Source of the DNA: Rhizobiales bacterium Y(2018)
GTDB lineage: Bacteria > Pseudomonadota > Alphaproteobacteria > Rhizobiales > Aestuariivirgaceae
Length of the DNA: 39,927 nt
NCBI GenBank assembly: GCA_005502925.1
Contig: SCPD01000028.1
Location: forward strand, 1-39,927
Direction: 5' to 3'
Under the pieces are notes generated by a model, which saw only the letters and a program-made list of their open reading frames with translations, was not told the origin of the DNA and did no database searches. The translations under genes were made by a program, and so were the position numbers. This document shows positions 1,174 to 23,193 of this stretch, piece after piece (within the stretch, counting starts at the first letter, position 1; each line of letters begins with the position of its first letter).

Positions 1174-1632
1174 TCACTCGATCGGGATGGTCAGGCCGAC
1201 CTTCACCCGGTCCATCACCACGAGTGTGTTGAAGCGGCGGATATTCTTGTTGTTGAACAGGAAGTCGGTGGTGAAGCGCTCATAGTCGATCATGCTCTTC
1301 ACCGCGACGATGAGGATGAAGTCGACCTCGCCCGTCACATAATAACACTGCATCACTTCCGGCGTGGCGCGCATCGCCTTCTTGAAGTCGCTCATGATGT
1401 CGGGGCGTTCGCGCTCGAGCGACACTTCCACCACCATCATCAGGGGATGGCCGACCGCCGCCGGCGAGACGACGGCGATCTCGGATTCGATCACGCCTGC
1501 TTCGCGCATCCGGTTGAGACGGCGCAGGCACGCCGACGGCGAAAGCCCGACTTCCTCGGCCAGTTCCTGCGCGGTGCGCCTCGAATTGGCCTGCACCAGC
1601 TTGAGGAGACGGATATCGAAGGCATCGAGCAT
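1174..1632 (-). CDS. Lrp/AsnC family transcriptional regulator
   Basis: This 152-residue protein has the usual length and layout of the family. An N-terminal winged helix-turn-helix (DAFDIRLLKLVQANSRRTA, then LSPSACLRRLNRMREAGVI) is followed by a C-terminal RAM/AsnC effector domain (VMQCYYVTGEVDFILIVAV). Start 1632 gives the canonical MLDAFD opening; the open frame reaches 1743, but that would add a basic extension running into the promoter region. The gene is divergent from acoA with 161 bp between them, and that gap holds AT-rich palindromes typical of Lrp-type sites. It is therefore the most likely local regulator of the aco operon and of itself. The effector, probably an amino or keto acid, is unknown. 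Confidence 0.92.
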   Translation of the reverse strand: MLDAFDIRLLKLVQANSRRTAQELAEEVGLSPSACLRRLNRMREAGVIESEIAVVSPAAVGHPLMMVVEVSLERERPDIMSDFKKAMRATPEVMQCYYVTGEVDFILIVAVKSMIDYERFTTDFLFNNKNIRRFNTLVVMDRVKVGLTIPIE

Positions 1633-1668
1633 GACAAAGTGCCGCCTGAATTTTTCACGTTGCGCTGC

Positions 1669-1709
1669 TTTACGCGTAAATTTTGCGGGATTGAACTTAA
1701 TTCGCAAAA
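1669..1709. promoter_or_regulatory. Candidate Lrp/AsnC operator between divergent genes
   Basis: The lrp-acoA intergenic gap holds a perfect 12-bp palindrome, TTTACGCGTAAA, at 1669-1680. Immediately after it is an inverted repeat of TTTTGCG (1681-1687) with CGCAAAA (1703-1709). This AT-rich island in GC-rich surroundings fits the symmetric A/T-flanked sites bound by Lrp/AsnC proteins. The assignment to this regulator is inference from position and symmetry. Confidence 0.55.
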
Positions 1710-1793
1710 ATCGGGCGGAGCGCCGATCTATCCTCACTGCCAAGAAGAGTTGGGTCGCCCTGGCGCTACGGCAGGGCGCTTTGGGAGAACGGA

Positions 1794-2768: not shown

Positions 2769-2777
2769 GCAGCATTC

Positions 2778-3794
2778 ATGGCACAGAAATCCTTCCGTCA
2801 GGCCTTGAACGAGGCTCTCCATCACGAAATGCGCCGCGATCCGAATGTGATCGTGCTCGGCGAGGATGTCGCCGGCGGCTCGGGCGCCTCCGGTCAGAAG
2901 GACGCCTGGGGCGGCGCCTTCGGCGTCACCAAGGGTCTTCTCGGCGCCTTCGGCCCGGCGCGTGTACGCGACACGCCGATCACCGAAAGCGCCTTTGTCG
3001 GCGCCGCCGCGGGTGCGGCGATGACCGGCCTGCGTCCCGTCGCCGAGATCATGTTCGTCGATTTTCTGGGCGTCTGCTTCGACCAGATCTTCAATCAGGC
3101 GGCGAAATTCCGCTACATGTTCGGCGGCAAGGCGGTGACGCCGCTGGTGATCCGCGCCACCTACGGCGCCGGCACGCGCTCGGCGAGCCAGCACAGCCAG
3201 GCGCTCTATCCGATCTTCACCCATGTGCCGGGCCTCAAGGTGGTGATCCCGTCATCGCCTTATGACGCGAAGGGCCTGCTCATCCAGGCGATCCGCGACA
3301 ATGATCCGGTGATCTTCCTTGAGAACAAGGTTCTCTATGACACGGTGGGCGAGGTGCCGGACGGCGCCTATACGGTGCCCTTCGGCGAGGCACATATCGT
3401 GCGCGAAGGCGGTGACGCCACCATCGTGGCGCTTGGCCGCATGGTGCATTTCGCCCGCGAGGCGGCCGAAATACTCGCTGCCGAGGGCATCGACTGCACG
3501 GTGCTGGATCCGCGCACCACATCGCCCCTCGATGAGGACACGCTCCTCGAGATGGCGGAGGAAACCGGCCGCGTGGTGATCGTCGATGAAGCCAATCCGC
3601 GCTGCGGCATGGCCGCCGACATTTCTTCGATCATCGCCGAGAAGGCGTTCGGCGCGCTCAAGGCGCCGATCATGAAAGTGACGGCGCCGCATACACCCGT
3701 ACCTTACGCGCCCAATCTCGAAGCCGCCTATATTCCCGACGCCAAACGCATCGCCGACGCGGTGCGCAAGGCGGTCGCCTTCAAGAGGTCATGA
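2778..3794 (+). CDS. acoB: Acetoin/2-oxoacid dehydrogenase E1 beta subunit
   Basis: The 338-residue protein is an E1 beta transketolase-like subunit. It shows the N-terminal ALNEALHHEMRRDPNVIVLGEDV block, the central DTPITESAFVGAAAG stretch and the C-terminal transketolase domain (VLDPRTTSPLDEDTL, then VIVDEANPRCGMAADI). It forms the heterotetrameric E1 with the product of acoA, whose stop lies 9 bp upstream. The 3' end overlaps acoC by 4 bp, which indicates translational coupling. Length and order match known acoABC clusters. The substrate could also be another 2-oxoacid. Confidence 0.9.
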   Translation: MAQKSFRQALNEALHHEMRRDPNVIVLGEDVAGGSGASGQKDAWGGAFGVTKGLLGAFGPARVRDTPITESAFVGAAAGAAMTGLRPVAEIMFVDFLGVCFDQIFNQAAKFRYMFGGKAVTPLVIRATYGAGTRSASQHSQALYPIFTHVPGLKVVIPSSPYDAKGLLIQAIRDNDPVIFLENKVLYDTVGEVPDGAYTVPFGEAHIVREGGDATIVALGRMVHFAREAAEILAAEGIDCTVLDPRTTSPLDEDTLLEMAEETGRVVIVDEANPRCGMAADISSIIAEKAFGALKAPIMKVTAPHTPVPYAPNLEAAYIPDAKRIADAVRKAVAFKRS

Positions 3795-4918
3795 CGATGA
3801 GCGACCGCATCCAGGCGATCACCATGCCCAAATGGGGCATGACCATGACGGAAGGCAAGCTCGCGGGCTGGCTCGCCGGCGAAGGCGCCGATATCGCGGC
3901 CGGCCAGGAGATCATGGAGGTCGAGACCGAGAAGATCACCAATGTGGTCGAGTCTCAAGCGCCGGGCCGCCTGCGCAAAATCGTGGTGAGCGAAGGCGCC
4001 ACCGCCCCGGTCGGTGCACTCCTCGCCGTGCTCGCCGCCGAGGATGTCTCCGACAGCGATGTCGAAGCTTTTATCGCAAGCTATGCCGATCGCGCCGGAA
4101 GTGCAGCGGCCGACGCCGACGATGCGCCGAAAGCGCGTATCGTCCAGGCCGGCGCCCATCGCTTCAAGGTGCTGAGCCTCGGCTCGGGCGGCGTTCCCGC
4201 CGTGCTGATCCATGGCTTCGGCGGCGATGGCGGCACCTGGCTCTTCAACCAGGATACGCTGGCGCAGAACCGTCTTGTGCATGTCATCGACCTGCCGGCG
4301 CATGGCGATTCGGAACCGACGGTGCCGAGCGGCAAGGTCGCTGATATCGCCGGAGCCGTGCTCGAGCTCTTCGCCGCACTCGATATCGAGAAGGCCCATC
4401 TCATCGGCCATTCGCTGGGCGGCGCCGTGGCGCTCGCCATCGCGCAAGCCTCGCCGCAGCGCGTCCAATCGCTGAGCCTCATCGCACCGGCGGGCATCGG
4501 TTCGGAAATCTCCGCCCTTTATATCGACGGCTTCCTCGCCGCCGAACGGCGCAAGCCGATGAAGGAAGTGCTGTCGCTGCTCTTCGCCGATCCGCAAGGC
4601 ATGAATGCCGAGATGGTCGAGAATGTGCTGCGTTTCAAACGTCTCGATGGCGTGCCCGAGGCGCTCGCCGCCATCGTCAGCCATCTCATGGCCGACGGCA
4701 AGCAGGTCATCGACCTGCGTGCGGTCCTCGACGGCAAGATCCCGGCGCTTGTCATCTGGGGCGAGGCCGACCAGATCATTCCGGCGAACCAGAGCGACGG
4801 CCTGCCGGCAGGCATCGACGTGGCGCGGCTGGCCGGCGCCGGCCATATGCCGATGATGGAAGAGGCGGCGCAGGTGAACCGTCTCGTCACCGCCCATCTC
4901 GGCAAGGCGGAGGGCTGA
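3791..4918 (+). CDS. acoC: AcoC-type E2: lipoyl domain fused to alpha/beta hydrolase
   Basis: The 375-residue protein has an N-terminal lipoyl domain (residues 7-80) with the lipoylated lysine at K48 in EVETEKI. A linker leads to an alpha/beta-hydrolase domain (about 120-375) with nucleophile motif GHSLGG (S208) and a catalytic histidine in GAGHMP (about H352). It lacks the standard 2-oxoacid dehydrogenase acyltransferase domain. This lipoyl-hydrolase fusion and its length are characteristic of AcoC of acetoin dehydrogenase complexes, and it is the strongest evidence for the aco assignment. Starts at 3791 and 3797 are both possible; 3791 gives the 4-bp overlap with acoB. Confidence 0.9.
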   Translation: MTMSDRIQAITMPKWGMTMTEGKLAGWLAGEGADIAAGQEIMEVETEKITNVVESQAPGRLRKIVVSEGATAPVGALLAVLAAEDVSDSDVEAFIASYADRAGSAAADADDAPKARIVQAGAHRFKVLSLGSGGVPAVLIHGFGGDGGTWLFNQDTLAQNRLVHVIDLPAHGDSEPTVPSGKVADIAGAVLELFAALDIEKAHLIGHSLGGAVALAIAQASPQRVQSLSLIAPAGIGSEISALYIDGFLAAERRKPMKEVLSLLFADPQGMNAEMVENVLRFKRLDGVPEALAAIVSHLMADGKQVIDLRAVLDGKIPALVIWGEADQIIPANQSDGLPAGIDVARLAGAGHMPMMEEAAQVNRLVTAHLGKAEG

Positions 4919-4922
4919 GCCC

Positions 4923-5462
4923 ATGAGCGTCAGACCGCCGCAAGGCCTGCCGGGACTGCGCGGCACCGAGCATATCGGTCTCACCGTTCCCGATTTCGAC
5001 GCGGCGGTCGATTTCTTCGTGCGCATCATCGGCTGCGACTTCATCCTCGATGGCGGTATCTATGCCGATCCCGATTTCATGGAGCGGCAGATCGGCGTCG
5101 ACCGCAAAGCGCGCTTCCGCTGGGGCTTCGTGCGCTGCGGCAACGGCCCCAATTTCGAGATCTTCGAATATTCGGCTCCCCGTCAGGCCGTGGTGCCGCC
5201 GCTCAACAGCGACATCGGCGGTCATCATCTCGCTTTCTACGTCGACGACATCGAAGCCGCCGTCGCGCATCTGAAAGCCCATGGCGTCACCGTCCAGGGC
5301 GACATCCAGAAAATCGAGGAGGGACCGGCAGCGGGATCGCTGTGGATCTATTTCCGCAGCCCCTGGGGACTGCAGATGGAGCTTGTGAGCTACCCGCAAG
5401 GCAAGGGCCCGGAAGGCTCGCCGGCGCGGCGGCTCTGGCATCCGGGCAAGCCGCAGGGTTAG
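4923..5462 (+). CDS. VOC (glyoxalase/dioxygenase) superfamily protein
   Basis: The 179-residue protein has two beta-alpha-beta-beta-beta modules of the vicinal-oxygen-chelate fold. The first begins GTEHIGLTVPDFDAAVDFF and the second GGHHLAFYVDDIEAAVAHL. Likely metal ligands are H17, H101 or H102, and E153 (LQMELVSYP). The start lies 4 bp after the acoC stop, so it is part of the aco operon. The family includes lyases, epimerases and dioxygenases, and the sequence alone does not say which. From its place beside acoABC it may prepare or detoxify a keto or hydroxy-keto substrate. VOC genes are not a standard part of aco clusters as I know them. Confidence 0.85.
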   Translation: MSVRPPQGLPGLRGTEHIGLTVPDFDAAVDFFVRIIGCDFILDGGIYADPDFMERQIGVDRKARFRWGFVRCGNGPNFEIFEYSAPRQAVVPPLNSDIGGHHLAFYVDDIEAAVAHLKAHGVTVQGDIQKIEEGPAAGSLWIYFRSPWGLQMELVSYPQGKGPEGSPARRLWHPGKPQG

Positions 5463-5500
5463 CGCGATGATCTTCGTGGAAGCTCGAGCTCTCTCCGGTT

Positions 5501-5650
5501 TTCCCCTTCTCCCGCTTGCGGGAGAAGGTGGCCGAAGGCCGGATGAGGGTGTTCTCTCAGCTTCTGTTCTCCTGAAGAGCTGTCGTGAGCTGAACCAACA
5601 CCCTCATCCGCCCTGTCGGGCACCTTCTCCCGCAAGCGGGAGAAGGGGAA
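5501..5650. repeat. RIME-like palindromic element, copy 1 (short core)
   Basis: The left arm is a hairpin, CTTCTCCCGCTTGCGGGAGAAG, followed by a small GGCCGAAGGCC hairpin and GGATGAGGGTGTT. The right arm is its complement, AACACCCTCATCC, followed by another hairpin of the same outer sequence. The whole can fold as a branched cruciform. The central spacer is about 46 bases, roughly half that of the copies at 23223 and 26000. It fills the gap between the aco operon and the amino-acid permease genes. Confidence 0.9.
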
Positions 5651-5690
5651 TGCGGATACAAGGCGCTACCACCATGGCGGAGCGCCGGCC

Positions 5691-6377
5691 ATGATCGACT
5701 ATGATTTCCTGCGCTCGCTCGATTTCTCGATCGTGTGGAAATACCTGCCGGTGCTCATCGACGGCTTGGGCACGAATATCCTCCTGACGGCGATCGGCTT
5801 CATCTGCGGCGGCGTCGTGGTCGGCACGCTGCTGGCGCTCGCCAATCTCTCGCCAAATCGTTTCATCAGCTGGCCGGCCTGGATCTTCGTCGAATTCTGG
5901 CGCTCGACGCCGCTTCTGGTGCAGGCCATCTGGGTGCATTTTGCCGTCCCCGGCATCACCGGCATCTCGATGACGCCGTTCCAGAGCGGTTCGATCGCGC
6001 TCATCTTCAACGTCGCCGCTTATTGCAGCGAAATCATCCGCGGCGGCATCGGCGCCATCGGCAAAGGCCAGTTCGAGGCGGCGAAGTCGCTGGGTCTGCG
6101 TTTCTATCCGACCTGGCGGCTCGTCATCCTGCCGCAAGCGATAAAACTCATGCTGCCGCCGCTCGTCGGCACCACGATCAGCATCTTCAAGGCGACGACC
6201 ATCCTCTCGGTGCTCGCCATCGATGATCTGATGCGCACCGCGAGCCGGCTTTCCTCCAGCACCTTCCAGCCGGTCGAGATCTATACGACCGCGGCGGTGC
6301 TCGCTTTCATCGTCGGCGCCGCCATCACCTTTGCGGGCTACGCCGCCGAAAAGAGACTGAAGCGGGGGATGGCATGA
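5691..6377 (+). CDS. Polar amino acid ABC transporter permease (HisM/GlnP family)
   Basis: The 228-residue inner-membrane protein has about five hydrophobic segments and the permease EAA loop (EAAKSLGLRFYPTWRLVILPQA, about residues 125-145), the family's contact site for the ATPase. The conserved FVEFWRSTPLLVQ motif near residue 65 is typical of the polar amino acid family. It overlaps the next permease by 4 bp (ATGA) and should form a heterodimer with it. The ATG follows a palindromic element by about 40 bp, so its promoter is either very short or lies further upstream. No ATP-binding subunit is encoded nearby. Confidence 0.9.
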   Translation: MIDYDFLRSLDFSIVWKYLPVLIDGLGTNILLTAIGFICGGVVVGTLLALANLSPNRFISWPAWIFVEFWRSTPLLVQAIWVHFAVPGITGISMTPFQSGSIALIFNVAAYCSEIIRGGIGAIGKGQFEAAKSLGLRFYPTWRLVILPQAIKLMLPPLVGTTISIFKATTILSVLAIDDLMRTASRLSSSTFQPVEIYTTAAVLAFIVGAAITFAGYAAEKRLKRGMA

Positions 6378-7111
6378 GCTTCGATCTCGCCCTCGTCCTG
6401 CGCAATGGCGGCACGCTTCTCGACGGCGCCCTGGTCACACTCGCCATCGCGCTGGTCGGCGCGCTCGTCGCGGTTTTCGGCGGCGCTCTCATCTGCGCCG
6501 CCCGCATCTCCAAGAGCGCCGTCCTCAGAAGCATCGCCCGCGGCTATATCCTGTTCTTCCGCGTCACGCCGGAAGTCGTTTTGATCTTCTGGGCCTATTA
6601 TTGCGTGCCCTTGATCTTCGCCACCAAGGTCTCGGGCTTCTGGGCGGGATCGGTGGTGCTTGGCCTCATCGGCGCGGCCTTCCTCGCCGAAATCTACCGC
6701 GCCGGCATCGAATCCGTGCCGCGCGGCCAAGTCGAGGCGGCGCATGCGCTGGGGCTGCCGGCCTTGCCCAAATGGGGGTTCGTCATCCTGCCGCAGGCCC
6801 TGCGCCTGTCGATCGCGCCGCTGGTCAATTACTTCTCCGAGTTCCTCAAGAACACGACGCTCCTGTCGGCGATCGGCGTCGCCGACCTGTCACTCCAGGC
6901 CTATCTGCTCGGCGGCCAGACCTATCGCTATATCGAATTCCTGTCGGCCATCGCCGTCGTCTATTTCTTCATGATCTTCCCGGTCATCCTGTTCGCGCGC
7001 CGGCTCGAAAACCGGCTCGGCCGGCCGGGCAAACGCGAGCGCACCTTCGGCACTTATCTGGCGAAGCTGCCACGCTCACAGAGATCCGCATCACGCCTGG
7101 CCAATCCCTGA
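6374..7111 (+). CDS. Polar amino acid ABC transporter permease, second subunit
   Basis: The 245-residue membrane protein belongs to the same HisQ/HisM family as its upstream partner. It shows the YILFFRVTPEVVLIFW segment and the EAA loop EAAHALGLPALPKWGFVILPQ. The C-terminal 30 residues are basic and cytoplasmic. It is translationally coupled to the first permease and followed 25 bp later by the binding-protein gene. Together they form the membrane channel of an amino acid importer. The neighbouring ammonia-lyase gene suggests the cargo is its substrate or a blocked form of it. Confidence 0.9.
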   Translation: MSFDLALVLRNGGTLLDGALVTLAIALVGALVAVFGGALICAARISKSAVLRSIARGYILFFRVTPEVVLIFWAYYCVPLIFATKVSGFWAGSVVLGLIGAAFLAEIYRAGIESVPRGQVEAAHALGLPALPKWGFVILPQALRLSIAPLVNYFSEFLKNTTLLSAIGVADLSLQAYLLGGQTYRYIEFLSAIAVVYFFMIFPVILFARRLENRLGRPGKRERTFGTYLAKLPRSQRSASRLANP

Positions 7112-7136
7112 CAACAAACAGACGGAGGAAACTGAC

Positions 7137-7955
7137 ATGAAAGCCTTGCTGAAAAAATGGAGCCAATGCGCGGCGCTCGTCGCGACACTGGTCACTTTCG
7201 CCGTGGCACCCGCCTCGGCCGATCTCCTGAAGGAGATCCGCGATCGTGGCGTCTTCCGCGTCGGCATGGCGGAAACCCAGCCCTGGCAGGCGCCTAACCC
7301 TGAGACCGGCACTTACGAAGGCATCAATGTCGAGCTCGCCGAGCGCGCCGCCAAGATCATGGGCGTCAAGCTCGAGATCGTGCCGGCCACCTGGGCGACA
7401 CTCGTGCCCGGCCTCGAAGCCAATCAGTTCGATGCGGTCTTCGCCAATCTCTTCGCCACGCCTGAGCGCGCTTTGGTCGTCGACTTCACCGAGCCTTATT
7501 TCACTTTCGGCTTTCATGTCGTCGTCACCGCCAATTCGAAGATCCAGTCGCTCGCCGATCTCGACTCGCCGGATGTCACCTTTGTCGGGCAGAGCGGCAC
7601 GGTCGAGGAGAGCTATCCGAAAGAGATGTTCCCTAAAGCCAAGGTGCGCGGCGTGCTCACTAATGACGTCGCCGCCTGGATCAGCGAAGTCGCCTCCGGC
7701 CAGGCCGATGCCGCCTTCCTCGATCCCGGCACCTATCGCCTGCTCAAGGCCAAGAATCCGGCCTTCGAACAGCGCCTGCGCGTTCTCAATGGTGAGGATG
7801 CGCTCCTCAAGCCGGTCGGTCTTGCCTACGCGATCCGTGCCGGCGAGCCGCATTTCCTCAACTTCCTGAATACGTTCCTGCGCGATGTCGTGCGCAACGG
7901 CGAGAATGTGAAGCTGCGCGACAAGTGGTTCGACGCGCTGGCCAAGCGCCAATAA
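7137..7955 (+). CDS. Amino acid ABC transporter substrate-binding protein (SBP family 3)
   Basis: The 272-residue protein has a Sec signal peptide (residues 1-28, ending PASA) and a type II periplasmic-binding fold of SBP family 3. Landmarks are ILKEIRDRG-like opening LLKEIRDRGVFRVGMAETQP, then YEGINVELAERAAKIMG, PERALVVDFTEPYF and the hinge region GQSGTVEES. An excellent ribosome site (GGAGGAA) sits 7 bp before the ATG. It should deliver a polar amino acid to the two permeases just upstream. The downstream PLP lyase, M20-like and Ntn-hydrolase genes suggest an unusual or N-substituted amino acid, but the ligand cannot be read from sequence. Confidence 0.9.
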   Translation: MKALLKKWSQCAALVATLVTFAVAPASADLLKEIRDRGVFRVGMAETQPWQAPNPETGTYEGINVELAERAAKIMGVKLEIVPATWATLVPGLEANQFDAVFANLFATPERALVVDFTEPYFTFGFHVVVTANSKIQSLADLDSPDVTFVGQSGTVEESYPKEMFPKAKVRGVLTNDVAAWISEVASGQADAAFLDPGTYRLLKAKNPAFEQRLRVLNGEDALLKPVGLAYAIRAGEPHFLNFLNTFLRDVVRNGENVKLRDKWFDALAKRQ

Positions 7956-8020
7956 CGCTCAAACTGCCGGGCGTCTTCCAACAAGGACGCCCGGTGCCGA
8001 CTAAAAAATGGGAATATAAG

Positions 8021-9241
8021 ATGCAACTTCAGCGGTACTCCGCGCTGGCGGTCCATAATGCTCATGGTAACCGGGCGCGTCCTTACAGTGACACGGAACG
8101 CCACGTGCTGAGCCAGGACGGCTTCCGCATAGCGAAGGCCGAAATCAGCGCCTGGCCCGGCTACAGGCCGACGCCGCTCATCACGCTCGCCGGTCTCGCC
8201 GGAAGGCTCGGTGTCGGCGCAGTGCTCTATAAAGATGAAGGCCAGCGGCTCGGCCTCAAGAGCTTCAAGGCCATCGGCGGCGCCTATGCGGTGCTGACCG
8301 TGCTGAAGGATCATCTCGCCGACAAACATGGAATCAAGGACGCGGCGGTCGCCGATCTGGTGGCCGGCAAATACCGCGACCAGGTCGCCGATGTCACTGT
8401 CGCCGCCGCCACCGACGGCAATCACGGGCGTTCGGTCGCCTGGGGTGCCCAGCTGTTCGGCGCCAATTGCGTGATCTATCTGCACAGCCATGTCAGCCCG
8501 ACGCGCGAGCGCGAGATCGCCCGTTTCGGCGCCAGGATCGTGCGCGTCAAAGGCCATTATGACGACTCGGTTCGTGACTGCGCCGTCGATGCCGCCAAGA
8601 ATGGTTGGGTGCTGGTCGCCGACACTTCGTCCGATCCGAAAGCGCGTGTGCCCTCGCTCATCATGCAGGGTTATTCGCTGATCGCCGATGAGGTGCTGAA
8701 GCAGACGGAAACGACCGGACGGCCGACCCATGTTTTCGTCCAGGCCGGCGTCGGCGGTCTCGCCGCTGCTTTCGGCGCGCATTACTGGGATCTGTTCGGC
8801 GCGGACCGGCCGCGCCTCATCGTCGTCGAGCCGATCCAGGCCGACTGCGTCTTCCGCAGCATCGCCGCCGGCAAGCCGACCATGGTGCCGGGCGATACCA
8901 ATACCGTCATGGCCTGCCTCGCCGCAGGCCAGGTCTCGGCCCCTGCCTGGGTGGTGATGCAGCATGCGGTCGATGACGTCCTGGCGCTGCCAGAGGATGC
9001 CGCACCCGACGCGATGCGTATCCTGGCCACGGGCATCGATGGCGATCCCGCCATCGTCGCCGGTGAATCGGGCTGTGCCGCCACGGCGGGCTTGATTGCC
9101 GCGGCGCTCGATCCGAAGCTCAAGGCGGCGCTTGGTCTCGACGCGAAGTCGCGGGTGCTGGTGATCGGGAGCGAAGGAGCGACGGATGAGGATGCCTATC
9201 TGCGGATCGTCGGCCGGACGTCGGATGCGGTCGCAGCCTGA
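8021..9241 (+). CDS. dpaL: Diaminopropionate ammonia-lyase family PLP enzyme
   Basis: The 406-residue fold-type II PLP enzyme closely resembles E. coli YgeX (DpaL), which converts 2,3-diaminopropionate to pyruvate and two ammonia. The PLP lysine is K83 (LKSFKAIGGAYA). The catalytic aspartates of the family appear as D132 (TDGNHGRSVAWGAQ) and D201 (ADTSSD), and the phosphate loop as QAGVGGLAA. ATG 8021 is preferred because it aligns with family N-termini; the open frame extends to 7925, overlapping the binding-protein gene. An oddity is that the segment after D201 reads SSDPKAR where, from memory, YgeX has an aromatic-acidic AWEGY stretch. Real substrate preference may therefore differ. The following four genes are co-directional. 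Confidence 0.88.
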   Translation: MQLQRYSALAVHNAHGNRARPYSDTERHVLSQDGFRIAKAEISAWPGYRPTPLITLAGLAGRLGVGAVLYKDEGQRLGLKSFKAIGGAYAVLTVLKDHLADKHGIKDAAVADLVAGKYRDQVADVTVAAATDGNHGRSVAWGAQLFGANCVIYLHSHVSPTREREIARFGARIVRVKGHYDDSVRDCAVDAAKNGWVLVADTSSDPKARVPSLIMQGYSLIADEVLKQTETTGRPTHVFVQAGVGGLAAAFGAHYWDLFGADRPRLIVVEPIQADCVFRSIAAGKPTMVPGDTNTVMACLAAGQVSAPAWVVMQHAVDDVLALPEDAAPDAMRILATGIDGDPAIVAGESGCAATAGLIAAALDPKLKAALGLDAKSRVLVIGSEGATDEDAYLRIVGRTSDAVAA

Positions 9242-9254
9242 AGGGGAGGTGTAG

Positions 9255-10040
9255 ATGAGCGGGTTGCTTGAGGGAAAGACGGCTTTCATCACCGGTGGTG
9301 CCCAGGGAATCGGGCTTGCCGTCGCCGAGGCCTATCTGAAACATGGCGCAAAGGTCATCGCCGCCGATATCGACAAACGCGCCGTGGCCGACGCGCAAAG
9401 CCGGCTCGCGTCGCTCGCCGGCGACCGTGCCCGCGTGGTCGAGCTCGACGTCACCAGTGAAGACGCGACCGAAGCGCTGGCCGACCGGCTGTTCAAGGAT
9501 GGCGGCGTCGATATCGTCGTCCCCAATGCCGGCATTCTCGTCCTCAAGCGTGCCGTCGATTTTGATCTGCCGACCTGGCGGCGCGTCCTCGACATCAACC
9601 TCACCGGCGCTTTCGTCACCGCCACGTCCTTCGCCAGGCGGATGGTGCCGCAGGGCCGGGGCGGGCGCATCATCCTCACCTCATCGCTGTTCGGACTGCG
9701 CGGCGGTGTCGAAAACGCCGCCTATTCGGCATCGAAATTCGGCATGATCGGACTGATGCAATGCCTCGCCGCCGAGCTCGCCGCCGACGGCATCCTGGTC
9801 AATTGCGTGTGTCCCGGCCAGATGGACACGGCGATGCTCCATAAATTGTTCGACATGCGCGCCGTGCTGCAAGGCAAGCCGGCCGATGAGCTCAAAGCCG
9901 CCTTCAAGGCGAAGATCCCACTGGGTGAGCTCGGCAAGCTCGACGATCTCGCCGGCGCCTATGTCTATCTCGCCTCCGATCTCGCGCGTTATGTCGTCGG
10001 CCAGTCGCTGGTCATTGATGGCGGATGGCAGGTCGGATGA
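9255..10040 (+). CDS. SDR family oxidoreductase
   Basis: The 261-residue classical short-chain dehydrogenase has a cofactor motif TGGAQGIG at residues 13-20, the NAG motif (PNAGIL), a catalytic serine in ILTSSLFG, and the catalytic pair Y157 and K161 (YSASK). An aspartate after the second strand (AADIDKRA) favours NAD over NADP. It starts 13 bp after the ammonia-lyase stop and overlaps the next gene by 4 bp (ATGA), so it is in the same operon. It probably oxidises a hydroxy group or reduces a keto group of a pathway intermediate. The exact substrate is not predictable. Confidence 0.9.
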   Translation: MSGLLEGKTAFITGGAQGIGLAVAEAYLKHGAKVIAADIDKRAVADAQSRLASLAGDRARVVELDVTSEDATEALADRLFKDGGVDIVVPNAGILVLKRAVDFDLPTWRRVLDINLTGAFVTATSFARRMVPQGRGGRIILTSSLFGLRGGVENAAYSASKFGMIGLMQCLAAELAADGILVNCVCPGQMDTAMLHKLFDMRAVLQGKPADELKAAFKAKIPLGELGKLDDLAGAYVYLASDLARYVVGQSLVIDGGWQVG

Positions 10041-11251
10041 GCGATATTGCCGCGATCAAGGTCTATGCGGAAGCCGAGCGCGCGGCCCTGCTGGATCTCT
10101 GCGCCCAGCTCGTCGCGGCGCCGAGCCCGCAGCCGGTCGGCGACACGACGGAGCCTGTCGGGGTTCTCACGAGAGTTCTGCGCGATGCCGGCCTCGCGCC
10201 TGAGATCCGCCAATGCGATCCGCGCAAGCCCAATATCGTCTGCAGCTTCGAAGGCGCCGGGCCCGGACCACATCTGGTGCTCAACGGCCATGTCGACACG
10301 CTCAATCCGGGCGATGAAAAATCCTGGTCGGTGCCGGTCTATGCTCTGTCGCGCCGCAATGGCCTGATGAGCGGGCTCGGCATCGGCAATATGAAAGCCG
10401 GAAGTGCCGCGCTGACCAAGGCCTTCATCGGCCTCCATGCGCGCCGCGCTGAGATTGCCGGCCGTGTGACTTTGACACTCGTTTCCGACGAGGTCGTGTT
10501 CGGCCCGGCGGGCTCGGCCTTTCTTCTCGATCATGACGACACGCTCACCGGTGATTTCCTGATCAATGCCGAAGGACCGGGAGCGATGAATCTCGCGGTC
10601 GCCGAAAAGGGCCTTCTGTGGCTCAGCATCGAAGCGACCGCGGCGCCGGGACAGGGCATGCTGACGCGTACCGGCTCGTCGGCCATTGCGCGGCTCGCCC
10701 GGCTTCTTGCCGAGATCGATGGCTGGAATGATGAAACCGTAACACCGCCCGACGGCATGGCGGCGCTCGCCGATTTTGCCGGCGAACATGGCCTGCGGCT
10801 CTCGGTCAATGCCGGCGAAATTCAAGGTGGCGATTTCGTCAGCCAGGTGGCGGTGAAGGCCACGGCTGAGGTCGATTTCCGCGTGCCACCCGGCCTCACC
10901 ATCGAGACGATCGAAAAACGCGTGCGCGATCTGGCCGAGACAATCGGCGGCATCACCGTCACGCGCATCAAAGGCTGGAATCCAAACTGGACGCCGATCG
11001 AGCATGCTCTGCCGCAAGCGATGCTGGCCGCGAGCACTGCGTTGCGCGGCAAGGCCGCTGCATCCGTCGTGCGATTGCCGGCGAGCGACGCCATGCGCTG
11101 GCGCGCGCGAGGCGTGCCGGCGATCTGCTTCGGGCCGCAAGCCGAGCTCGCTTCCGGCATCGACGACTATGTCTTCGAGCAGGATGTGGTCGATTGTCTC
11201 GCCATCTATATGGCCGCGGCGCTTTCGCTTCTGACGGAGTCCCGATCGTGA
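10037..11251 (+). CDS. M20-family metallohydrolase homologue with altered metal site
   Basis: The 404-residue protein has the M20 (ArgE/DapE/CPG2) layout: a catalytic domain interrupted by a dimerisation domain. The first metal motif is present (NGHVDTLNPGDEKSW). Elsewhere the expected ligands seem changed. The usual GRGxxDMKGG reads GLGIGNMKAG (bridging Asp to Asn), the usual DEE reads DEV (metal Glu to Val), the dimerisation-domain His is replaced in PGQGML, and the terminal AH before DEY reads AS before GIDDYV. It may be a non-canonical or single-metal subfamily or a pseudoenzyme. ATG 10037 overlaps the SDR stop; 10025 is an alternative. The gene is coupled to the next one by a GTGA overlap. 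YgeY, an M20 protein, accompanies YgeX in E. coli. Confidence 0.82.
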   Translation: MSDIAAIKVYAEAERAALLDLCAQLVAAPSPQPVGDTTEPVGVLTRVLRDAGLAPEIRQCDPRKPNIVCSFEGAGPGPHLVLNGHVDTLNPGDEKSWSVPVYALSRRNGLMSGLGIGNMKAGSAALTKAFIGLHARRAEIAGRVTLTLVSDEVVFGPAGSAFLLDHDDTLTGDFLINAEGPGAMNLAVAEKGLLWLSIEATAAPGQGMLTRTGSSAIARLARLLAEIDGWNDETVTPPDGMAALADFAGEHGLRLSVNAGEIQGGDFVSQVAVKATAEVDFRVPPGLTIETIEKRVRDLAETIGGITVTRIKGWNPNWTPIEHALPQAMLAASTALRGKAAASVVRLPASDAMRWRARGVPAICFGPQAELASGIDDYVFEQDVVDCLAIYMAAALSLLTESRS

Positions 11252-12753
11252 ACGCTAAATCGCCAAATTCCGGCAGCACTTTGATCGGCGATGCCTTCGC
11301 TTCGCGCGAAAGGCCGGTGCTCACAGGGCGGACCGGCGCTGTCGCCGCCGCCGACCCCTTCGCCGCCGCCGCGGCCCAGGAGATTCTCACGCTGGGCGGC
11401 AGCGCCGTCGATGCGATGGTCGCGGCGCAAGCGGTGCTGGCCGTGGTCGCTCCCGATGCCTGTGGTCTCGGCGGTGACATGCTCTGCCTCATCCGTGAGC
11501 CCGGCGGCAAGGTGCTCGCCGTGAACGGCACTGGGGCGGCGCCGAAAAAGCTCGGCCGCGTCACTACCGATGGCGGCGCCAGCATCACCGTGCCCGGCAT
11601 GGTCGATGCGTGGGCCGTGGCGCTCGAGCGTCATGGCCGGCTCTCCTTCAACCGTGTGCTGGAGCCGGCGATCCGCATCGCCCGTCTCGGCCTGCGCATC
11701 CCGGCGGCGCTGGCGCGCGCGGCGGAAATCCACCGCCCGCGGCTCGAGCGTTACGGCGCCGGACAATGGGGCCTGCTCAATGCCGCGCCCGGCGATCTCG
11801 TCATCCAGAACGAGCTCGCGATGACGCTCGACCGTATCGGCAAGGAGGGCGCGGGCGCCTTCTATCGCGGTGATTGTGCCGAAGCCATCGCCGCCGCCGT
11901 CAAGGCGCAAGGCGGCGCACTTTCGACTGCCGATCTGGCGGAGCATCAGACCGTGCTCGCCGAGCCGATCGCCGTCGCTTTCCGCGGCGCCCGGCTCCTG
12001 GTGCAGCCGCCGATTTCGCAAGGCGTTCTTCTCGCCATGGCCGCCAAGGCTTTGTCGGCACTGGGCGATGTGCCGGAGGATCGCCTCGATCACGCGGCGA
12101 TCGAACTGACGGAAGCGAGTTTCGCCTGGCGCGATCATGTCGCCGAGGGCGACAAGCTGCTCAAGAAGAAGCTCACGCTCGATCTCGATAAGTCGGGCCA
12201 GCGCGGAGGGCCCCGCGCTTATCTCCACACTGCGGGCATTGCCGTCGCCGACCGCCAGGGCTGCGTCGTCTCTTCGCTCGTCAGCGTGTTCGACGATTTC
12301 GGTTCCGCCGTGCTGGTGCCGGAATGCGGCTTCGTCCTCAACAACCGCGCCGGCGGCTTCACCAAGGCGCCCAATGAAGCGGCGCCCGGCAAGCGGCCTG
12401 TCCATACGCTGGCGCCGGTCCTGCTCGAGACGGCACGCGGACCGATCGCGCTGTCGACACCCGGCGCCGACGGGCAAGTGCAGACCTTGCTGCAGGTCCT
12501 ATCCGGACTGATGATAGAGGGTATCGACCTCGCCCAGGCGATCGGTCGGCCGCGCTGGCGCAGCGAGAACGGTCAGCTGCTGATCGAGGAAAGCCATCCG
12601 CGCCGCGCGCTTCTGGCCGGGCTCGGCCACAAGGTGATGCCGATGCCCGACGGCCATATGAAAGCCGGCGCGGTCACCGCCGCCGGCTCGATCGACGGCG
12701 CCCCCATCGCCTGCGGCGACTGGCGACGTAACACCTGGGCCGGGATCGTGTGA
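11248..12753 (+). CDS. Gamma-glutamyltransferase-family Ntn hydrolase
   Basis: The 501-residue protein is an N-terminal-nucleophile hydrolase related to gamma-glutamyltransferase. The predicted autocleavage nucleophile is T328 (LHTAGIAVADRQG), giving a small subunit of about 174 residues with FDDFGSAV, LNNRAGGF, PVHTLAPVL and STPGADGQVQTLLQ blocks. The glutamate-recognition residues of true GGT look absent: the Arg region reads NGTGAAP, the Asp after LNN is replaced (NRAGGF), and the paired serines are HT. No signal peptide is evident, so it should be cytoplasmic. GTG 11248 overlaps the M20 stop; an upstream in-frame ATG at 11194 is less likely. The family also includes oxamate amidohydrolase (HpxW) and cephalosporin acylases, so another amide is the likely substrate. 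Confidence 0.85.
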   Translation: MNAKSPNSGSTLIGDAFASRERPVLTGRTGAVAAADPFAAAAAQEILTLGGSAVDAMVAAQAVLAVVAPDACGLGGDMLCLIREPGGKVLAVNGTGAAPKKLGRVTTDGGASITVPGMVDAWAVALERHGRLSFNRVLEPAIRIARLGLRIPAALARAAEIHRPRLERYGAGQWGLLNAAPGDLVIQNELAMTLDRIGKEGAGAFYRGDCAEAIAAAVKAQGGALSTADLAEHQTVLAEPIAVAFRGARLLVQPPISQGVLLAMAAKALSALGDVPEDRLDHAAIELTEASFAWRDHVAEGDKLLKKKLTLDLDKSGQRGGPRAYLHTAGIAVADRQGCVVSSLVSVFDDFGSAVLVPECGFVLNNRAGGFTKAPNEAAPGKRPVHTLAPVLLETARGPIALSTPGADGQVQTLLQVLSGLMIEGIDLAQAIGRPRWRSENGQLLIEESHPRRALLAGLGHKVMPMPDGHMKAGAVTAAGSIDGAPIACGDWRRNTWAGIV

Positions 12754-12767
12754 CCTCCCCCTTATCC

Positions 12768-12864
12768 GTCATCCCGGCGAAAGCCGGAATCCATTAGAGG
12801 CCATGCGGCTATTGCTGCGGAAGCCGAGAGAATTTAGTGGGTCCCGGCTTTCGCCGGGATGACA
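12768..12864. repeat. REP-like inverted repeat pair
   Basis: GTCATCCCGGCGAAAGCCGG at 12768-12787 is followed about 53 bases later by the reverse-complement arm CCCGGCTTTCGCCGGGATGAC ending at 12864. This CATCCCGGCGAAAGCCGG unit is a common dispersed palindrome in alphaproteobacterial genomes. It lies between the Ntn-hydrolase stop and the exporter start, and an in-frame ATG at 12837 inside it is unlikely to be a real start. Confidence 0.9.
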
Positions 12865-12884
12865 AGTTTGTTCAAGGACCCTCC

Positions 12885-13724
12885 ATGCTCGCCTCGCTCG
12901 ATCTCGCCCATATGCTGGCCTATGCCGCGGCTCTTCTTTTCACTGGCGCATTAGGCGGTTTTGTCGCGGGGCTTCTGGGCGTCGGCGGCGGCATCGTCAT
13001 CGTGCCGGTGCTGTTCCATATCTTCACGCTGCTCGACATCGACGACGACGTGAAGATGCACCTGGCGGTCGGCACCTCGCTCTCCACCATCATCCTCACC
13101 TCGGCGATGTCGGTGCGCGCGCATTGGCGGCGCGGCGCCGTCGACATGGATCTGCTCAAGCGCTGGGGCATCGGCATCTTTCTCGGCGTGGTGGCGGGCA
13201 CCTTGCTCGCGACACATGTCAAAGGCCCGGTGCTGATGGCGGTGTTCGGCGTCGTGGCGCTCATCGTCTCGTTTCACATGGCCTTTTCGAAGCCTTCCTG
13301 GCGCATCGCCGACAAGCTGCCTGGCGGCATAACCGAGCAAGCGATGGCGACCAGCATCGGCGGCGTCTCCGCCATGATGGGGATCGGCGGCGGTACGCTG
13401 TCGGTGCCGACTTTGTCGCTCTTCGGCTATCCGATCCACAAGGCGGTCGGCACGGCGGCGGCAATCGGCTTCATCATCGGCGTGCCGGGCACGATCGGCT
13501 TCGTGCTGAGCGGAATGGGCGACAGCGAATTACCGCCTTTCTCTTTCGGCTATGTGAGTCTTCTCGGCCTCGCACTCATCACGCCCACTTCCATCCTCAT
13601 GGCGCCGGTCGGCGCCTGGGCGGCGCATGCGCTGCCGGTGCGTGGCCTCAAGCTCGCTTTTGCGGCATTCCTGTTCGTCACCGCTTTGCGCATGTTGTGG
13701 ACGGTGCTCGACTTCCTGACGTGA
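12885..13724 (+). CDS. TauE/SafE family anion exporter
   Basis: The 279-residue inner-membrane protein has about eight hydrophobic segments and the duplicated TauE/SafE signature: GLLGVGGGIVIVP near residue 30 and MGIGGGTLSVPTLS near 165. Known members export sulfite, sulfoacetate and other small organic anions. ATG 12885 has an AAGGA ribosome site 6 bp upstream. It follows the catabolic cluster on the same strand but is separated by a REP-like repeat, so co-transcription is uncertain. A role in exporting an anionic product of the pathway is possible. Its stop is 1 bp from the stop of the convergent cyclase gene. Confidence 0.9.
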   Translation: MLASLDLAHMLAYAAALLFTGALGGFVAGLLGVGGGIVIVPVLFHIFTLLDIDDDVKMHLAVGTSLSTIILTSAMSVRAHWRRGAVDMDLLKRWGIGIFLGVVAGTLLATHVKGPVLMAVFGVVALIVSFHMAFSKPSWRIADKLPGGITEQAMATSIGGVSAMMGIGGGTLSVPTLSLFGYPIHKAVGTAAAIGFIIGVPGTIGFVLSGMGDSELPPFSFGYVSLLGLALITPTSILMAPVGAWAAHALPVRGLKLAFAAFLFVTALRMLWTVLDFLT

Positions 13725-15663: not shown

Positions 15664-15666
15664 GCG

Positions 15667-16311
15667 TCAGGGGCGGATCAGGCGCGCGATCAAGGGAACG
15701 GGGCCCGCTTTGGCGGTGGGCGCGATGGCGAAGAGAAAGTCGACCTTGGGCCCACGCAGCCGGTAGATGGCGCCGGGCGTCAGGGAAATGCCGAGCGCCT
15801 GCAGATCGAGGCGGGCGCCCGATGCTTCGACATCCTTGGGTGGCTCGAAGCTGTCGACCCGCTGGATGATCGCCGGTCCGTTTGCGATCGGCGCGAAAAG
15901 CGGCTGCGTTCCGTAGCTCGCGGCGAAGGCGGCGAATCTGTCCGTTTCCCGATAAGCGGTGACTCCACTCTCCTGGGCCTGGCCGGACGACAGTTTCATG
16001 CCGCGGCCCGAGCAATCGATTTCCTCGCGCTGGAGGGCGCCGCCTTTGACCGTGCTCTTCTCGAAACCGACGATGACGTGGCCGCCGGTGATGGTCTCGC
16101 GCTGGCACGATTTGAGATAGCTGACGATGAGCTTCTCGTCGGGCGCGAGGTCGAAGGCGGTGCCGGCCTCCAGATAATCCATGAGGAAGACGCCGGTGCG
16201 CTCCGGCGCCTCTTCGACGATGGCGACGGGCTCGCCCGCTTGCACTTGCGGAGAGAAGCCCATGGCGAGCGTCAGGCACGCGAAGAAGGAGGCGAAGGAG
16301 AGACGTGACAT
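15667..16311 (-). CDS. Exported protein of unknown function, between caspase and cyclase
   Basis: The 214-residue protein has a clear Sec signal peptide (MSRLSFASFFACLTLAMGFS, cleavage near VQAGE). The mature part has a FecR-like flavour: APDEKLIVSYLKSCQRETITGG followed by VGFEKSTVKGG and a pair of cysteines in SCQRE and IDCSGRG that could form a disulfide. I do not recognise a firm family. ATG 16311 is chosen because it gives the signal peptide; the open frame extends to 16395 over the caspase gene. It lies 7 bp after the caspase stop and 3 bp before the cyclase start, so all three are likely co-expressed and it could feed a periplasmic signal to CHASE2. Confidence 0.8.
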   Translation of the reverse strand: MSRLSFASFFACLTLAMGFSPQVQAGEPVAIVEEAPERTGVFLMDYLEAGTAFDLAPDEKLIVSYLKSCQRETITGGHVIVGFEKSTVKGGALQREEIDCSGRGMKLSSGQAQESGVTAYRETDRFAAFAASYGTQPLFAPIANGPAIIQRVDSFEPPKDVEASGARLDLQALGISLTPGAIYRLRGPKVDFLFAIAPTAKAGPVPLIARLIRP

Positions 16312-16318
16312 TGGGGGA

Positions 16319-22413: not shown

Positions 22414-23193
22414 GTGACGCTCGCCAGAAAACTGACCATCTTGCTTCTGGGCTACGAGATCATCCCCAAGACCGTCTCGACCCGCGACCGCGGCGGTCGC
22501 TTCGTGATGGCGGAGCCGATCTGCGCCTATCTGATCGAGACGGCCAAGGGCCATGTCCTGTTCGACACCGGCGTCAATGCCGACAATATCCGCGATCCGG
22601 TCCGCCGTGAGGAGTATTTTATGAGCCGCGGCTGGCTTGCCCCGCCGATCGTGCTGCCCGAGCATGACTTTCTGCCCCAGCTCAAGGCGGTCGGCGTCGC
22701 GCCCGGCGACATCAAGGATGTGGTGCTGAGCCATGTCCATTGCGATCACACCGGCCATCTCAAGCATCTGCGCCACGCCAATATCTGGATCCAGCGCATC
22801 GAGCATGACTATGCCTTCTCGGATCACGGCAATCTCGCGGTGTTCAACGACGATTTTGATTTCCCCGATATGAAATGGCGGATCGTCGACGGCGACTTCG
22901 AGCTGATGTCCGGCATCGAAGGTATTTTCACGCGCGGCCACATGCCCGGTCATCAGTCGCTGGTGGTCACGCTGCCGAAGAGCGGCGTCAAGGTGCTGAC
23001 CGCCGATGCAGGCGATCTGTGGGAGAATTTCGAAGAGGAAGTGCTGCCGGGCGAAAGCTGTGACGATGTCGCGGCACTTGCCTCGATCCGCAAGCTCAAG
23101 GCGATCGCCCAGGAGCGCTCGGGCGAGCTCATTCTTCTGCATGACCCCGTCCGGGTACAGAAGCTCAAACTCGCGCCGGAGTTCTACGACTGA
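22414..23193 (+). CDS. AHL-lactonase-like metallo-beta-lactamase-fold hydrolase
   Basis: The 259-residue protein is of the AttM/AiiA type. The zinc motif HxHxDH is H107-x-H109-x-D111-H112 (SHVHCDHTGHL), with further ligands in GHMPGHQS and in LTADAGDL. The opening ILLLGYEIIPK and the DPVRREEY and PPIVLPEHDFLPQL segments fit the N-acyl-homoserine-lactonase family. It starts with GTG 22414 after a GGGAGG site. It is cytoplasmic and probably opens a lactone, either AHL (quorum quenching) or a small catabolic lactone such as gamma-butyrolactone. It is divergent from the BMP importer, which suggests a shared substrate or signal. Confidence 0.87.
   Translation: MTLARKLTILLLGYEIIPKTVSTRDRGGRFVMAEPICAYLIETAKGHVLFDTGVNADNIRDPVRREEYFMSRGWLAPPIVLPEHDFLPQLKAVGVAPGDIKDVVLSHVHCDHTGHLKHLRHANIWIQRIEHDYAFSDHGNLAVFNDDFDFPDMKWRIVDGDFELMSGIEGIFTRGHMPGHQSLVVTLPKSGVKVLTADAGDLWENFEEEVLPGESCDDVAALASIRKLKAIAQERSGELILLHDPVRVQKLKLAPEFYD

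What the first reader, a model, noticed from the sequence alone, without database searches (positions are those of the whole stretch)
8021..12753. Candidate undescribed catabolic pathway: DpaL-like lyase, SDR, M20-like protein and GGT-like Ntn hydrolase
Four co-directional, tightly linked or overlapping genes follow an amino acid importer, and a TauE/SafE exporter comes next. Known: DpaL turns 2,3-diaminopropionate into pyruvate and ammonia, E. coli ygeX is next to an M20 gene (ygeY), and GGT-family proteins include amidases such as oxamate amidohydrolase. Inference: the cluster imports an N-blocked or unusual diamino acid, removes the blocking group with the hydrolases and deaminates it to pyruvate. 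One testable idea is an N-oxalyl- or gamma-glutamyl-diaminopropionate from legume plants. An alternative is a sulfonated amino acid, given the TauE-type exporter.
Basis: partly seen in the sequence, partly recalled or inferred. Interest (0 to 1): 0.72.

Follow-up and report, generated by a model that had tools for sequence, protein, structure and literature searches.

The report
Unassigned diamino-acid breakdown gene cluster
A bacterium carries a gene set, found in shuffled forms in distantly related bacteria, that looks built to break down an unidentified nitrogen-rich compound into a two-amino-group acid and then into ordinary metabolites, and it includes a peptidase-family protein whose metal site is altered in a consistent way.

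Summary
In detail: DpaL, SDR, M20-like and GGT-like genes at 8021-12753, co-directional, one 13-nt gap, two 4-nt overlaps. The unit is larger: it starts at 1794 with acetoin-dehydrogenase-type E1/E2 and a VOC gene, and relatives join it to a BMP-type importer and a lactonase-like hydrolase (window 17677-23193). Of 37 loci with the same M20 clade (three proteobacterial classes, Actinobacteria), 26 hold a DpaL homologue, 29 a GGT-like gene, 21 both; 0 of 7 control M20 loci hold either. The M20 protein has lost two metal ligands in 40 of 40 rows (one was part of the search pattern) but keeps the catalytic Glu. The GGT-like protein keeps its Thr but not the gamma-glutamyl-binding Arg (27 of 28). 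DpaL keeps its catalytic residues, but the window's lineage lost a nearby loop motif. Best reading: a catabolic cluster in which M20-like and Ntn hydrolases unblock a 2,3-diamino acid derivative, DpaL makes a 2-oxo acid, and SDR/E1/E2 handle the rest. The substrate is unknown; legume toxin, gamma-glutamyl or sulfonate substrates are not supported. No paper found by my searches describes it. New variant of a known kind.

The parts
1174..1743 (-). Lrp/AsnC-family regulator, divergent from the operon; Lrp relatives stand near DpaL in other loci
   Evidence: PF01037; Lrp at 51-83% in L075, L076, L077, L089, L095; 60% beside a DpaL in L148
1794..2768 (+). E1 alpha, TPP-dependent 2-oxoacid/acetoin dehydrogenase type
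   Evidence: TIGR03182 318 bits, below its cut-off of 394; conserved in the cluster
2778..3794 (+). E1 beta
   Evidence: NF006667 360 bits, cut-off 321
3791..4918 (+). E2 of acetoin-dehydrogenase type (lipoyl plus alpha/beta hydrolase domain)
   Evidence: NF011457 434 bits, cut-off 307; Biotin_lipoyl and Abhydrolase
4923..5462 (+). VOC-family protein, role unknown
   Evidence: PF13669; conserved in Hyphomicrobiales loci
5691..7111 (+). two ABC permeases of polar amino acid type, no ATPase nearby
   Evidence: BPD_transp_1 for the first; the second cross-matches the first at about 33%; ORF list
7137..7955 (+). periplasmic amino-acid-binding protein (SBP_bac_3)
   Evidence: PF00497; best NCBIfam models (Lys/Arg/Orn, cystine, ectoine) all below cut-off
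8021..9241 (+). DpaL-like PLP lyase; K84, D133, D202 kept, [WY]xGY motif after D202 lost
   Evidence: NF006058 454 bits; aligned to 4d9g; motif table
9255..10040 (+). SDR dehydrogenase (SDR1)
   Evidence: PF00106/PF13561; 51-53% relatives in L096, L097, L100
10037..11251 (+). M20-like protein with altered metal site (N118 for Asp, V153 for Glu; H85, E152, E179 kept)
   Evidence: AlphaFold2 model mean pLDDT 91.9; DapE/ArgE fold
11248..12753 (+). GGT-superfamily Ntn hydrolase without the gamma-glutamyl-binding Arg; no signal peptide seen by eye
   Evidence: PF01019; alignments
12768..12863 (.). inverted repeat, 29-nt arms, between GGT and TauE
12885..13724 (+). TauE/SafE-family transporter, peripheral
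   Evidence: PF01925; by HMM only in the genus and in L085, L086
17677..22269 (-). BMP/PnrA-type ABC importer (two permeases, ATPase, binding protein); lies next to the cluster in L075, L076, L078
   Evidence: PF02608 for the binding protein; permeases and ATPase by eye and by those clusters
22414..23193 (+). MBL-fold hydrolase of AHL-lactonase/4-pyridoxolactonase type
   Evidence: NF045699 146 bits, below its cut-off of 375; same family in 13 of 37 loci

Best explanation
The genes from 1794 to 12753, with the importer and lactonase-like genes at 17677-23193, form one catabolic system for a small, polar, nitrogen-rich compound that is a blocked or cyclic derivative of a 2,3-diamino acid. It is imported (amino-acid ABC and BMP ABC proteins), oxidised or opened (SDR, in relatives also a GMC dehydrogenase; lactonase-like MBL), and split by the Ntn (GGT-like) amidase and the M20-like hydrolase into two halves. 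One half is a 2,3-diaminopropionate-type amino acid that DpaL converts to a 2-oxo acid and ammonia. The other half is a hydroxy or keto compound cleaved to acyl-CoA by the SDR/E1/E2 set. The M20-like protein is the hub: variants keep it while lacking either the DpaL arm or the E1/SDR arm. Shown: gene content, conservation, residues. Inferred: all reactions and the order of steps. Unknown: the substrate.
For: Conserved order in two of four examined relatives of the genus and shared gene content in other families. Of 37 loci of the M20 clade, 26 have DpaL, 29 GGT-like, 21 both, 15 E1 alpha, 21 SDR1, 13 MBL. Separable arms: L094 and L098 have M20, SDR1, E1 and MBL but neither DpaL nor GGT; L089, L091, L095, L106 and L108 have GGT, DpaL and M20 but neither E1 nor SDR1. 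Recruitment looks repeated: the GGTs of the second kind are 30-34% like the window's (7 loci), no nearer than the paralogues of L004-L030 at 31-38%. DpaL Lys and both Asp are kept in 28 of 28 cluster proteins. Parallels: DpaL beside carbamoylase-type M20 genes in L150 and L153, L149 by eye; YgeY with YgeX on albizziin (PMC12507026, section 8).
Against: No substrate, expression or enzyme data. The window-type DpaL has lost the [WY]xGY motif in 11 of 11 members, so its substrate may not be diaminopropionate itself. DpaL homologues are common (128 of 397 genomes of the order) while the M20 clade is rare (5 of 397), and window-type DpaLs (58-61%) also occur in G235 and G112, where one search found no M20 of this clade. 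In two genomes (G138, G103) DpaL lies outside the cluster. Of 37 loci 11 show no DpaL, 6 of these with only 3-12 kb of DNA held. L093 has 10 kb upstream yet neither DpaL nor E1. L084 has no GGT in 21 kb. The M20 protein may be catalytically dead. In the window the BMP and MBL genes are separated from the operon by other genes.
Confidence: 0.5

Rival explanations
1. The window-type DpaL is no diaminopropionate lyase but a beta-elimination lyase for another beta-N-substituted alanine or a 3-substituted diamino acid. The E1/E2 complex then oxidises the resulting, larger 2-oxo acid to acyl-CoA.
For: The motif after D202 is lost in 11 of 11 window-type proteins but kept in 9 of 9 actinobacterial and 7 of 8 third-type cluster proteins; TIGR03528 not passed; E1 alpha stands in 9 of the 10 window-type loci with at least 8 kb upstream (L074-L079, L081, L082, L084; not L093).
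Against: Catalytic Lys and both Asp are kept; the motif is also missing in 8 of 28 background DpaLs; third-type and actinobacterial clusters keep the motif yet use the same M20 clade; the other DpaLs scanned fail TIGR03528 too; E2 passes the acetoin-dehydrogenase model.
Confidence: 0.2
2. The compound is an N-heterocycle (pyrazine, pterin or pyrimidine type). Ring opening leaves N-acyl or N-carbamoyl diaminopropionate plus a keto or hydroxyketone fragment; the cluster is an aerobic counterpart of the reductive urate route.
For: Transport partners are BMP/PnrA (3 of 37 loci), NCS1 cytosine/purine-type permeases (6 of 37) and NMT1/THI5-type ABC (7 of 37); a PuuE allantoinase-like gene stands in L064 (370 bits, below its cut-off of 425) and L081 (87% to it); a DpaL relative serves a reductive-urate-type cluster in L150.
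Against: I recognised no ring-opening enzyme common to the variants; transporter families are loose guides; the amino-acid ABC transporter is the importer nearest DpaL in the window.
Confidence: 0.15
3. N-oxalyl- or gamma-glutamyl-diaminopropionate of legumes.
For: The GGT superfamily includes oxamate amidohydrolase HpxW (recalled; 5hft, taken to be HpxW from recall, matches at 3.8e-22), and N-oxalyl-diaminopropionate is a substituted oxamate.
Against: The gamma-glutamyl-binding Arg is absent in 27 of 28 cluster proteins; the best solved matches are 2nlz and 2i3o; the organisms are not legume-limited; no oxalate-handling gene was recognised by eye in the operon.
Confidence: 0.06
4. A sulfonated amino acid, with TauE exporting sulfite.
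For: TauE homologues lie next to DpaL in L085 and L086 and, by eye, near the cluster in L089; NMT1-type importers in third-type loci, one with a weak SsuA match (34 bits, cut-off 163.5).
Against: In the window TauE stands 131 nt downstream behind an inverted repeat; by HMM it was found only in the genus and in L085 and L086; no desulfonating enzyme was recognised by eye.
Confidence: 0.04
5. Two unrelated pathways (an acetoin-type dehydrogenase set and a diamino-acid set) happen to be neighbours.
For: Third-type loci lack E1 and SDR1; L094 and L098 lack DpaL and GGT.
Against: SDR1 and E1 occur with the same M20 clade in Hyphomicrobiales and in actinobacteria (E1 alpha in 15 of 37 loci, 14 of these with SDR1), in different gene orders.
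Confidence: 0.1

Closest known systems
Reductive urate pathway ygeX/ygeY (diaminopropionate ammonia-lyase with M20 hydrolase)
   Same: An M20-fold protein and a DpaL-type lyase act in one pathway ending in pyruvate (PMC12507026, abstract and sections 8 and 9).
   Different: YgeY models score low here (71 and 53 bits, cut-offs 321 and 321.5) and the window M20 lacks two metal ligands; no XdhD, YgfK, SsnA or HyuA gene was recognised within 1794-13724; E1/E2, SDR and the Ntn hydrolase are extra.
Ectoine/hydroxyectoine utilisation clusters (recalled)
   Same: AsnC-type regulator, SBP3-type importer, fold-II PLP enzyme, hydrolases.
   Different: The DpaL-like protein scores 52 bits against 413 for EutB; the binding protein is below the EhuB cut-off (85 against 191).
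Non-gamma-glutamyl GGT-superfamily hydrolases (2nlz, 2i3o; HpxW recalled)
   Same: PF01019, nucleophilic Thr, G-[STA]-G in place of the Arg motif.
   Different: Substrate unknown; 5hft is not the nearest solved relative.
DapE/ArgE branch of M20
   Same: Fold (best Foldseek hit a DapE, E 1.3e-32); His and catalytic Glu kept.
   Different: Bridging Asp is Asn and the second Glu is Val, Thr or Cys in 40 of 40 rows.
Acetoin dehydrogenase E1/E2
   Same: E2 passes the acetoin-type model.
   Different: Stands in an amino-acid-type cluster; no E3 recognised by eye in the operon; substrate untested.

Membership tests
Diaminopropionate ammonia-lyase (DpaL/YgeX) | general family model | tested here: met
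   NF006058 454 bits against 276
Diaminopropionate ammonia-lyase (DpaL/YgeX) | equivalog model TIGR03528 | tested here: not met
   317 bits against 532; the DpaLs of L091, L096 and L153 fail it too (371, 272, 308)
Diaminopropionate ammonia-lyase (DpaL/YgeX) | PLP Lys and two catalytic Asp (roles recalled) | tested here: met
   alignment to 4d9g; 28 of 28 cluster proteins
Diaminopropionate ammonia-lyase (DpaL/YgeX) | [WY]xGY motif after the second Asp, as in 4d9g | tested here: not met
   absent in 11 of 11 window-type proteins; also absent in 8 of 28 background proteins
Diaminopropionate ammonia-lyase (DpaL/YgeX) | activity on diaminopropionate | not testable with these tools
   no assay
M20 metallohydrolase (DapE/ArgE/YgeY) | fold and both domains | tested here: met
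   PF01546, PF07687; model and Foldseek
M20 metallohydrolase (DapE/ArgE/YgeY) | bridging Asp and second-site Glu of the dinuclear metal site (roles recalled) | tested here: not met
   Asn and Val/Thr/Cys in 40 of 40 rows, Asp and Glu in 7 of 7 controls; GNMK was one of the two search patterns, the second position was not
M20 metallohydrolase (DapE/ArgE/YgeY) | catalytic Glu, first-site His and acidic ligand (roles recalled) | tested here: met
   E152, H85, E179 in 40 of 40 rows
YgeY of the urate pathway | YgeY models | tested here: not met
   NF009555 71 bits against 321; TIGR03526 53 against 321.5
Gamma-glutamyltransferase | Ntn nucleophile Thr | tested here: met
   28 of 28 rows; GGT pieces of L102, L104 and L105 were too short to be included
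Gamma-glutamyltransferase | Arg that binds the gamma-glutamyl carboxylate (R114 of E. coli, recalled) | tested here: not met
   Thr in the window; Thr, Ser or Ala in 27 of 28 rows, Arg in L085, whose gene is in two pieces
Gamma-glutamyltransferase | equivalog model TIGR00066 | tested here: not met
   223 bits against 358
Oxamate amidohydrolase HpxW | activity on oxamate-type amides | not testable with these tools
   only a weaker match to 5hft
Acetoin dehydrogenase complex | E2 with lipoyl and alpha/beta hydrolase domains | tested here: met
Acetoin dehydrogenase complex | acetoin as substrate | not testable with these tools
   no assay

The most novel reading that the evidence does not exclude
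An undescribed catabolic route, spread over proteobacteria and actinobacteria, for a common but unidentified N-heterocycle or amino-acid conjugate. Its shared hub is a clade of M20-fold proteins that gave up the dinuclear metal site and work with one metal or none, splitting the compound into a 2,3-diamino acid for DpaL and a ketone for an acetoin-type dehydrogenase.
Probability: 0.3. Interest if true: 0.74.

Novelty: new variant of a known kind. Interest (0 to 1): 0.5.

Why it matters
The best-defined setting of a DpaL-type lyase that I found in print is reductive urate breakdown (PMC12507026). A second, widely distributed setting with an altered M20 protein would point to a diamino-acid-yielding compound in the environment that is not being counted, and would add a case of a metallohydrolase clade that changed its metal site under strong conservation. 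It also offers a marker for finding the pathway: GNMK plus DE[VTC] in an M20 protein.

Tried and rejected
Legume oxalyl or gamma-glutamyl diaminopropionate and sulfonates: see rivals. Urate itself: no urate-pathway genes recognised in the operon, and the DpaL of the reductive-urate-type locus L150 falls in another part of the tree. Glutathione-conjugate route (GGT, dipeptidase, beta-lyase): thought through and set aside because the Arg and two metal ligands are missing. Penicilloate, pterin, pyrazine, thiamine, vitamin B6, pantothenate and diamino-sugar-acid substrates were thought through only; none is tested. Loss of the C-terminal M20 His was first taken as special to the clade and dropped because 7 of 7 control M20 proteins lack it at that column too. 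The missing GGT Arg is not special to the cluster either: 10 of 10 paralogues read in frame lack it. L111 (22% identity) was dropped from all counts as not of the clade. Of the 19 paralogue rows, 9 were read in a wrong frame and are not used. GGT pieces of L102, L104 and L105 did not enter. The DpaL tree (quick method, 56 rows) has background from the window's order only, so it says nothing on the origin of the actinobacterial DpaLs; window-type DpaLs do not form one clade on it (3 changes), because L145-L148 lie among them. Literature searches. In one search I saw the listing and abstract starts of all 22 papers that hold the enzyme's name; none of those titles or abstract starts speaks of this cluster. 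One search (name plus gamma-glutamyltransferase plus gene cluster) found 0. One search, on the 5-nitroanthranilate enzyme, gave nothing useful. I read the outline with abstract and sections 8 and 9 of PMC12507026 and two passages of PMC8407117; no other paper was opened.
Full report
What is there. The four genes reported are real and correctly placed: DpaL-like 8021-9241, SDR 9255-10040, M20-like 10037-11251, GGT-like 11248-12753, all on the + strand with a 13-nt gap and two 4-nt overlaps. They are the back half of a longer co-directional run. Upstream lie E1 alpha, E1 beta and an acetoin-dehydrogenase-type E2 (NF011457, 434 bits against 307), a VOC protein, two amino-acid-type permeases and a binding protein, with no ATPase. 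An Lrp/AsnC regulator is divergent at 1174-1743. TauE follows 131 nt after GGT, beyond an inverted repeat with 29-nt arms.

Conservation near home. Of four relatives of the genus examined, two (G003, G002) hold the whole order from the regulator to TauE. In a draw of 397 genomes of the order, the window's included, five hold an M20 protein of this clade, four besides the window's (48-54% identical). Those four loci share E1 beta, E2, VOC, SDR and M20; three have GGT nearby, two have DpaL in place. The other two (G138, G103) have a 61-62% DpaL elsewhere in the genome. DpaL homologues as such are common: 128 of the 397 genomes, so the M20 clade, not DpaL, marks the cluster. G235 and G112 have DpaLs at 58-61% without an M20 of the clade.

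Conservation far away. A scan of genome contigs (84,980 species) with the M20 alignment gave 38 loci; L111 at 22% identity was dropped, leaving 37, from alpha-, beta- and gammaproteobacteria and actinobacteria. L074, L081, L082 and L084 are the same contigs as, so the sets overlap, and species are not independent. DpaL homologues are in 26 of 37, GGT-like genes in 29, both in 21, SDR1 in 21, E1 alpha in 15, the MBL family in 13, NCS1 in 6, NMT1-type binding proteins in 7, the PF07286-type protein in 9, BMP in 3 (profiles, 100 bits or more). Among the 26 loci with at least 8 kb on each side of M20, 21 have DpaL, 22 GGT, 24 at least one. Around seven ordinary M20 genes none has either.

Three builds recur. 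Window type, mainly Hyphomicrobiales: E1/E2/VOC, amino-acid ABC, DpaL, SDR, M20, in some a second SDR, GGT, in some a GMC dehydrogenase nearest to fructose and glucose dehydrogenases, and in L075, L076 and L078 the BMP ABC and MBL genes next to it. Actinobacteria: SDR, often MBL, NCS1 or TauE, DpaL, second SDR, HbpS-like, in some E1, then GGT-M20-GntR. Third type (Bradyrhizobium, Afipia, Burkholderia, Paracoccus and others): PF07286-type protein, a different GGT, DpaL, M20, often with an NMT1-type ABC; L083 and L092 of this type show no DpaL. In L094 and L098 (Acidimicrobiia) the M20 keeps SDR1, E1 and MBL but has neither DpaL nor GGT. L093, with 10 kb upstream, has the amino-acid ABC and SDR but neither E1 nor DpaL. 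The M20-like protein is thus the shared member of two separable arms; it was also the search query, so its presence in every locus is by construction, while the splitting of the arms is not.

The M20-like protein. Over 40 rows of the clade the first is always Asn (GNMK was one of the two search patterns, so this is biased) and the second is Val, Thr or Cys, never Glu (not in the pattern), while H85, D87, E152 and E179 are invariant; seven ordinary M20 proteins have Asp and Glu. Loss of the C-terminal His is shared with those controls. The AlphaFold2 model is confident (mean pLDDT 91.9); its best Foldseek hits are DapE, and 5-nitroanthranilate aminohydrolase, which by its name is no peptidase, is at rank 4. 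Conservation of the catalytic Glu and half of the metal site argues for a working mono-metal or metal-free enzyme; a dead one is not excluded.

The GGT-like protein keeps the Thr nucleophile (28 of 28 rows) and has Thr, Ser or Ala where E. coli GGT has the Arg for the gamma-glutamyl carboxylate (27 of 28; L085 shows Arg, but its gene is in two pieces). Ten of ten paralogues read in frame lack the Arg as well, so this marks a large branch of the superfamily, not the cluster alone. Its nearest solved relatives are 2nlz and 2i3o. It should be an amidase of another specificity; no signal peptide was seen by eye.

DpaL. The PLP Lys and both Asp are kept in 28 of 28 cluster proteins (roles recalled). 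In the window's lineage the motif after the second Asp (DTAWEGY in 4d9g) is lost in 11 of 11; it is kept in 9 of 9 actinobacterial and 7 of 8 third-type proteins; 8 of 28 background proteins lack it too. A quick tree of 56 proteins puts the actinobacterial (support 100) and third-type (94) DpaLs each on one side of a branch; the window type needs three changes because L145-L148 lie among it; a reductive-urate-type DpaL (L150) lies elsewhere. L150 stands beside a gene passing the Se-dependent XDH model and YgfK- and SsnA-like genes below their cut-offs. Carbamoylase-type M20 genes stand beside DpaL in L150 and beside the second DpaL of the window's own genome, L153, and by eye in L149. Removing N-substituents before DpaL acts is thus a repeated arrangement, and published chemistry shows it for albizziin (PMC12507026 section 8).

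Interpretation. The evidence supports a dedicated catabolic cluster with two hydrolases that free a 2,3-diamino acid for a DpaL-type lyase and a second arm (SDR, E1/E2, in relatives GMC and lactonase-like) for the remaining carbon part. The importers (amino-acid ABC, BMP, NCS1, NMT1 types) suggest a small polar N-compound, possibly cyclic. The substrate is not identified. The legume and gamma-glutamyl ideas lose support from the missing Arg and the wide range of organisms; the sulfonate idea from the peripheral place of TauE, though TauE also adjoins DpaL in L085 and L086.

Literature. In the held library 22 papers contain the enzyme's name; I saw their listing and abstract starts, and none of these speaks of this cluster; a search with gamma-glutamyltransferase and gene cluster added found 0. 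Most subscription papers are outside that library.

Noticed in passing
L150 (G286, window's order) 1526-10830: A reductive-urate-type cluster (Se-dependent XDH, YgfK-like, SsnA-like, carbamoylase-type M20, nitrilase-type amidase, DpaL) in the window's order.
   Followed up: partly
L153 (window genome contig C22) 8566-15142: A second DpaL (43%) with an AsnC-like regulator, an M24-like peptidase and an SBP3-like importer (by eye) and a carbamoylase-type M20.
   Followed up: partly
L063 6872-8515: The small GMC subunit and DpaL are read as one 547-aa frame: fusion or missing stop between them.
   Followed up: no
L063 and L064, about 12.1-15.7 kb: PuuE-allantoinase-like, NAD-epimerase-like and HpaB-like genes follow the cluster; role unknown.
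   Followed up: partly
L075 13410-13961, L078 11738-12244: Conserved protein of about 170 aa after GGT in Mesorhizobium-type loci; L078 copy without Pfam match, L075 copy without NCBIfam match.
   Followed up: partly
window 13726-17593: A CHASE2-type adenylate cyclase and a caspase-like protein (by eye) lie between the operon and the BMP importer.
   Followed up: no
window 34823-38676: Hydantoinase/oxoprolinase-type HyuA and HyuB pair (by eye) beside a branched-chain-type ABC; a HyuA relative also lies near the cluster in L065, L082 and L087.
   Followed up: no
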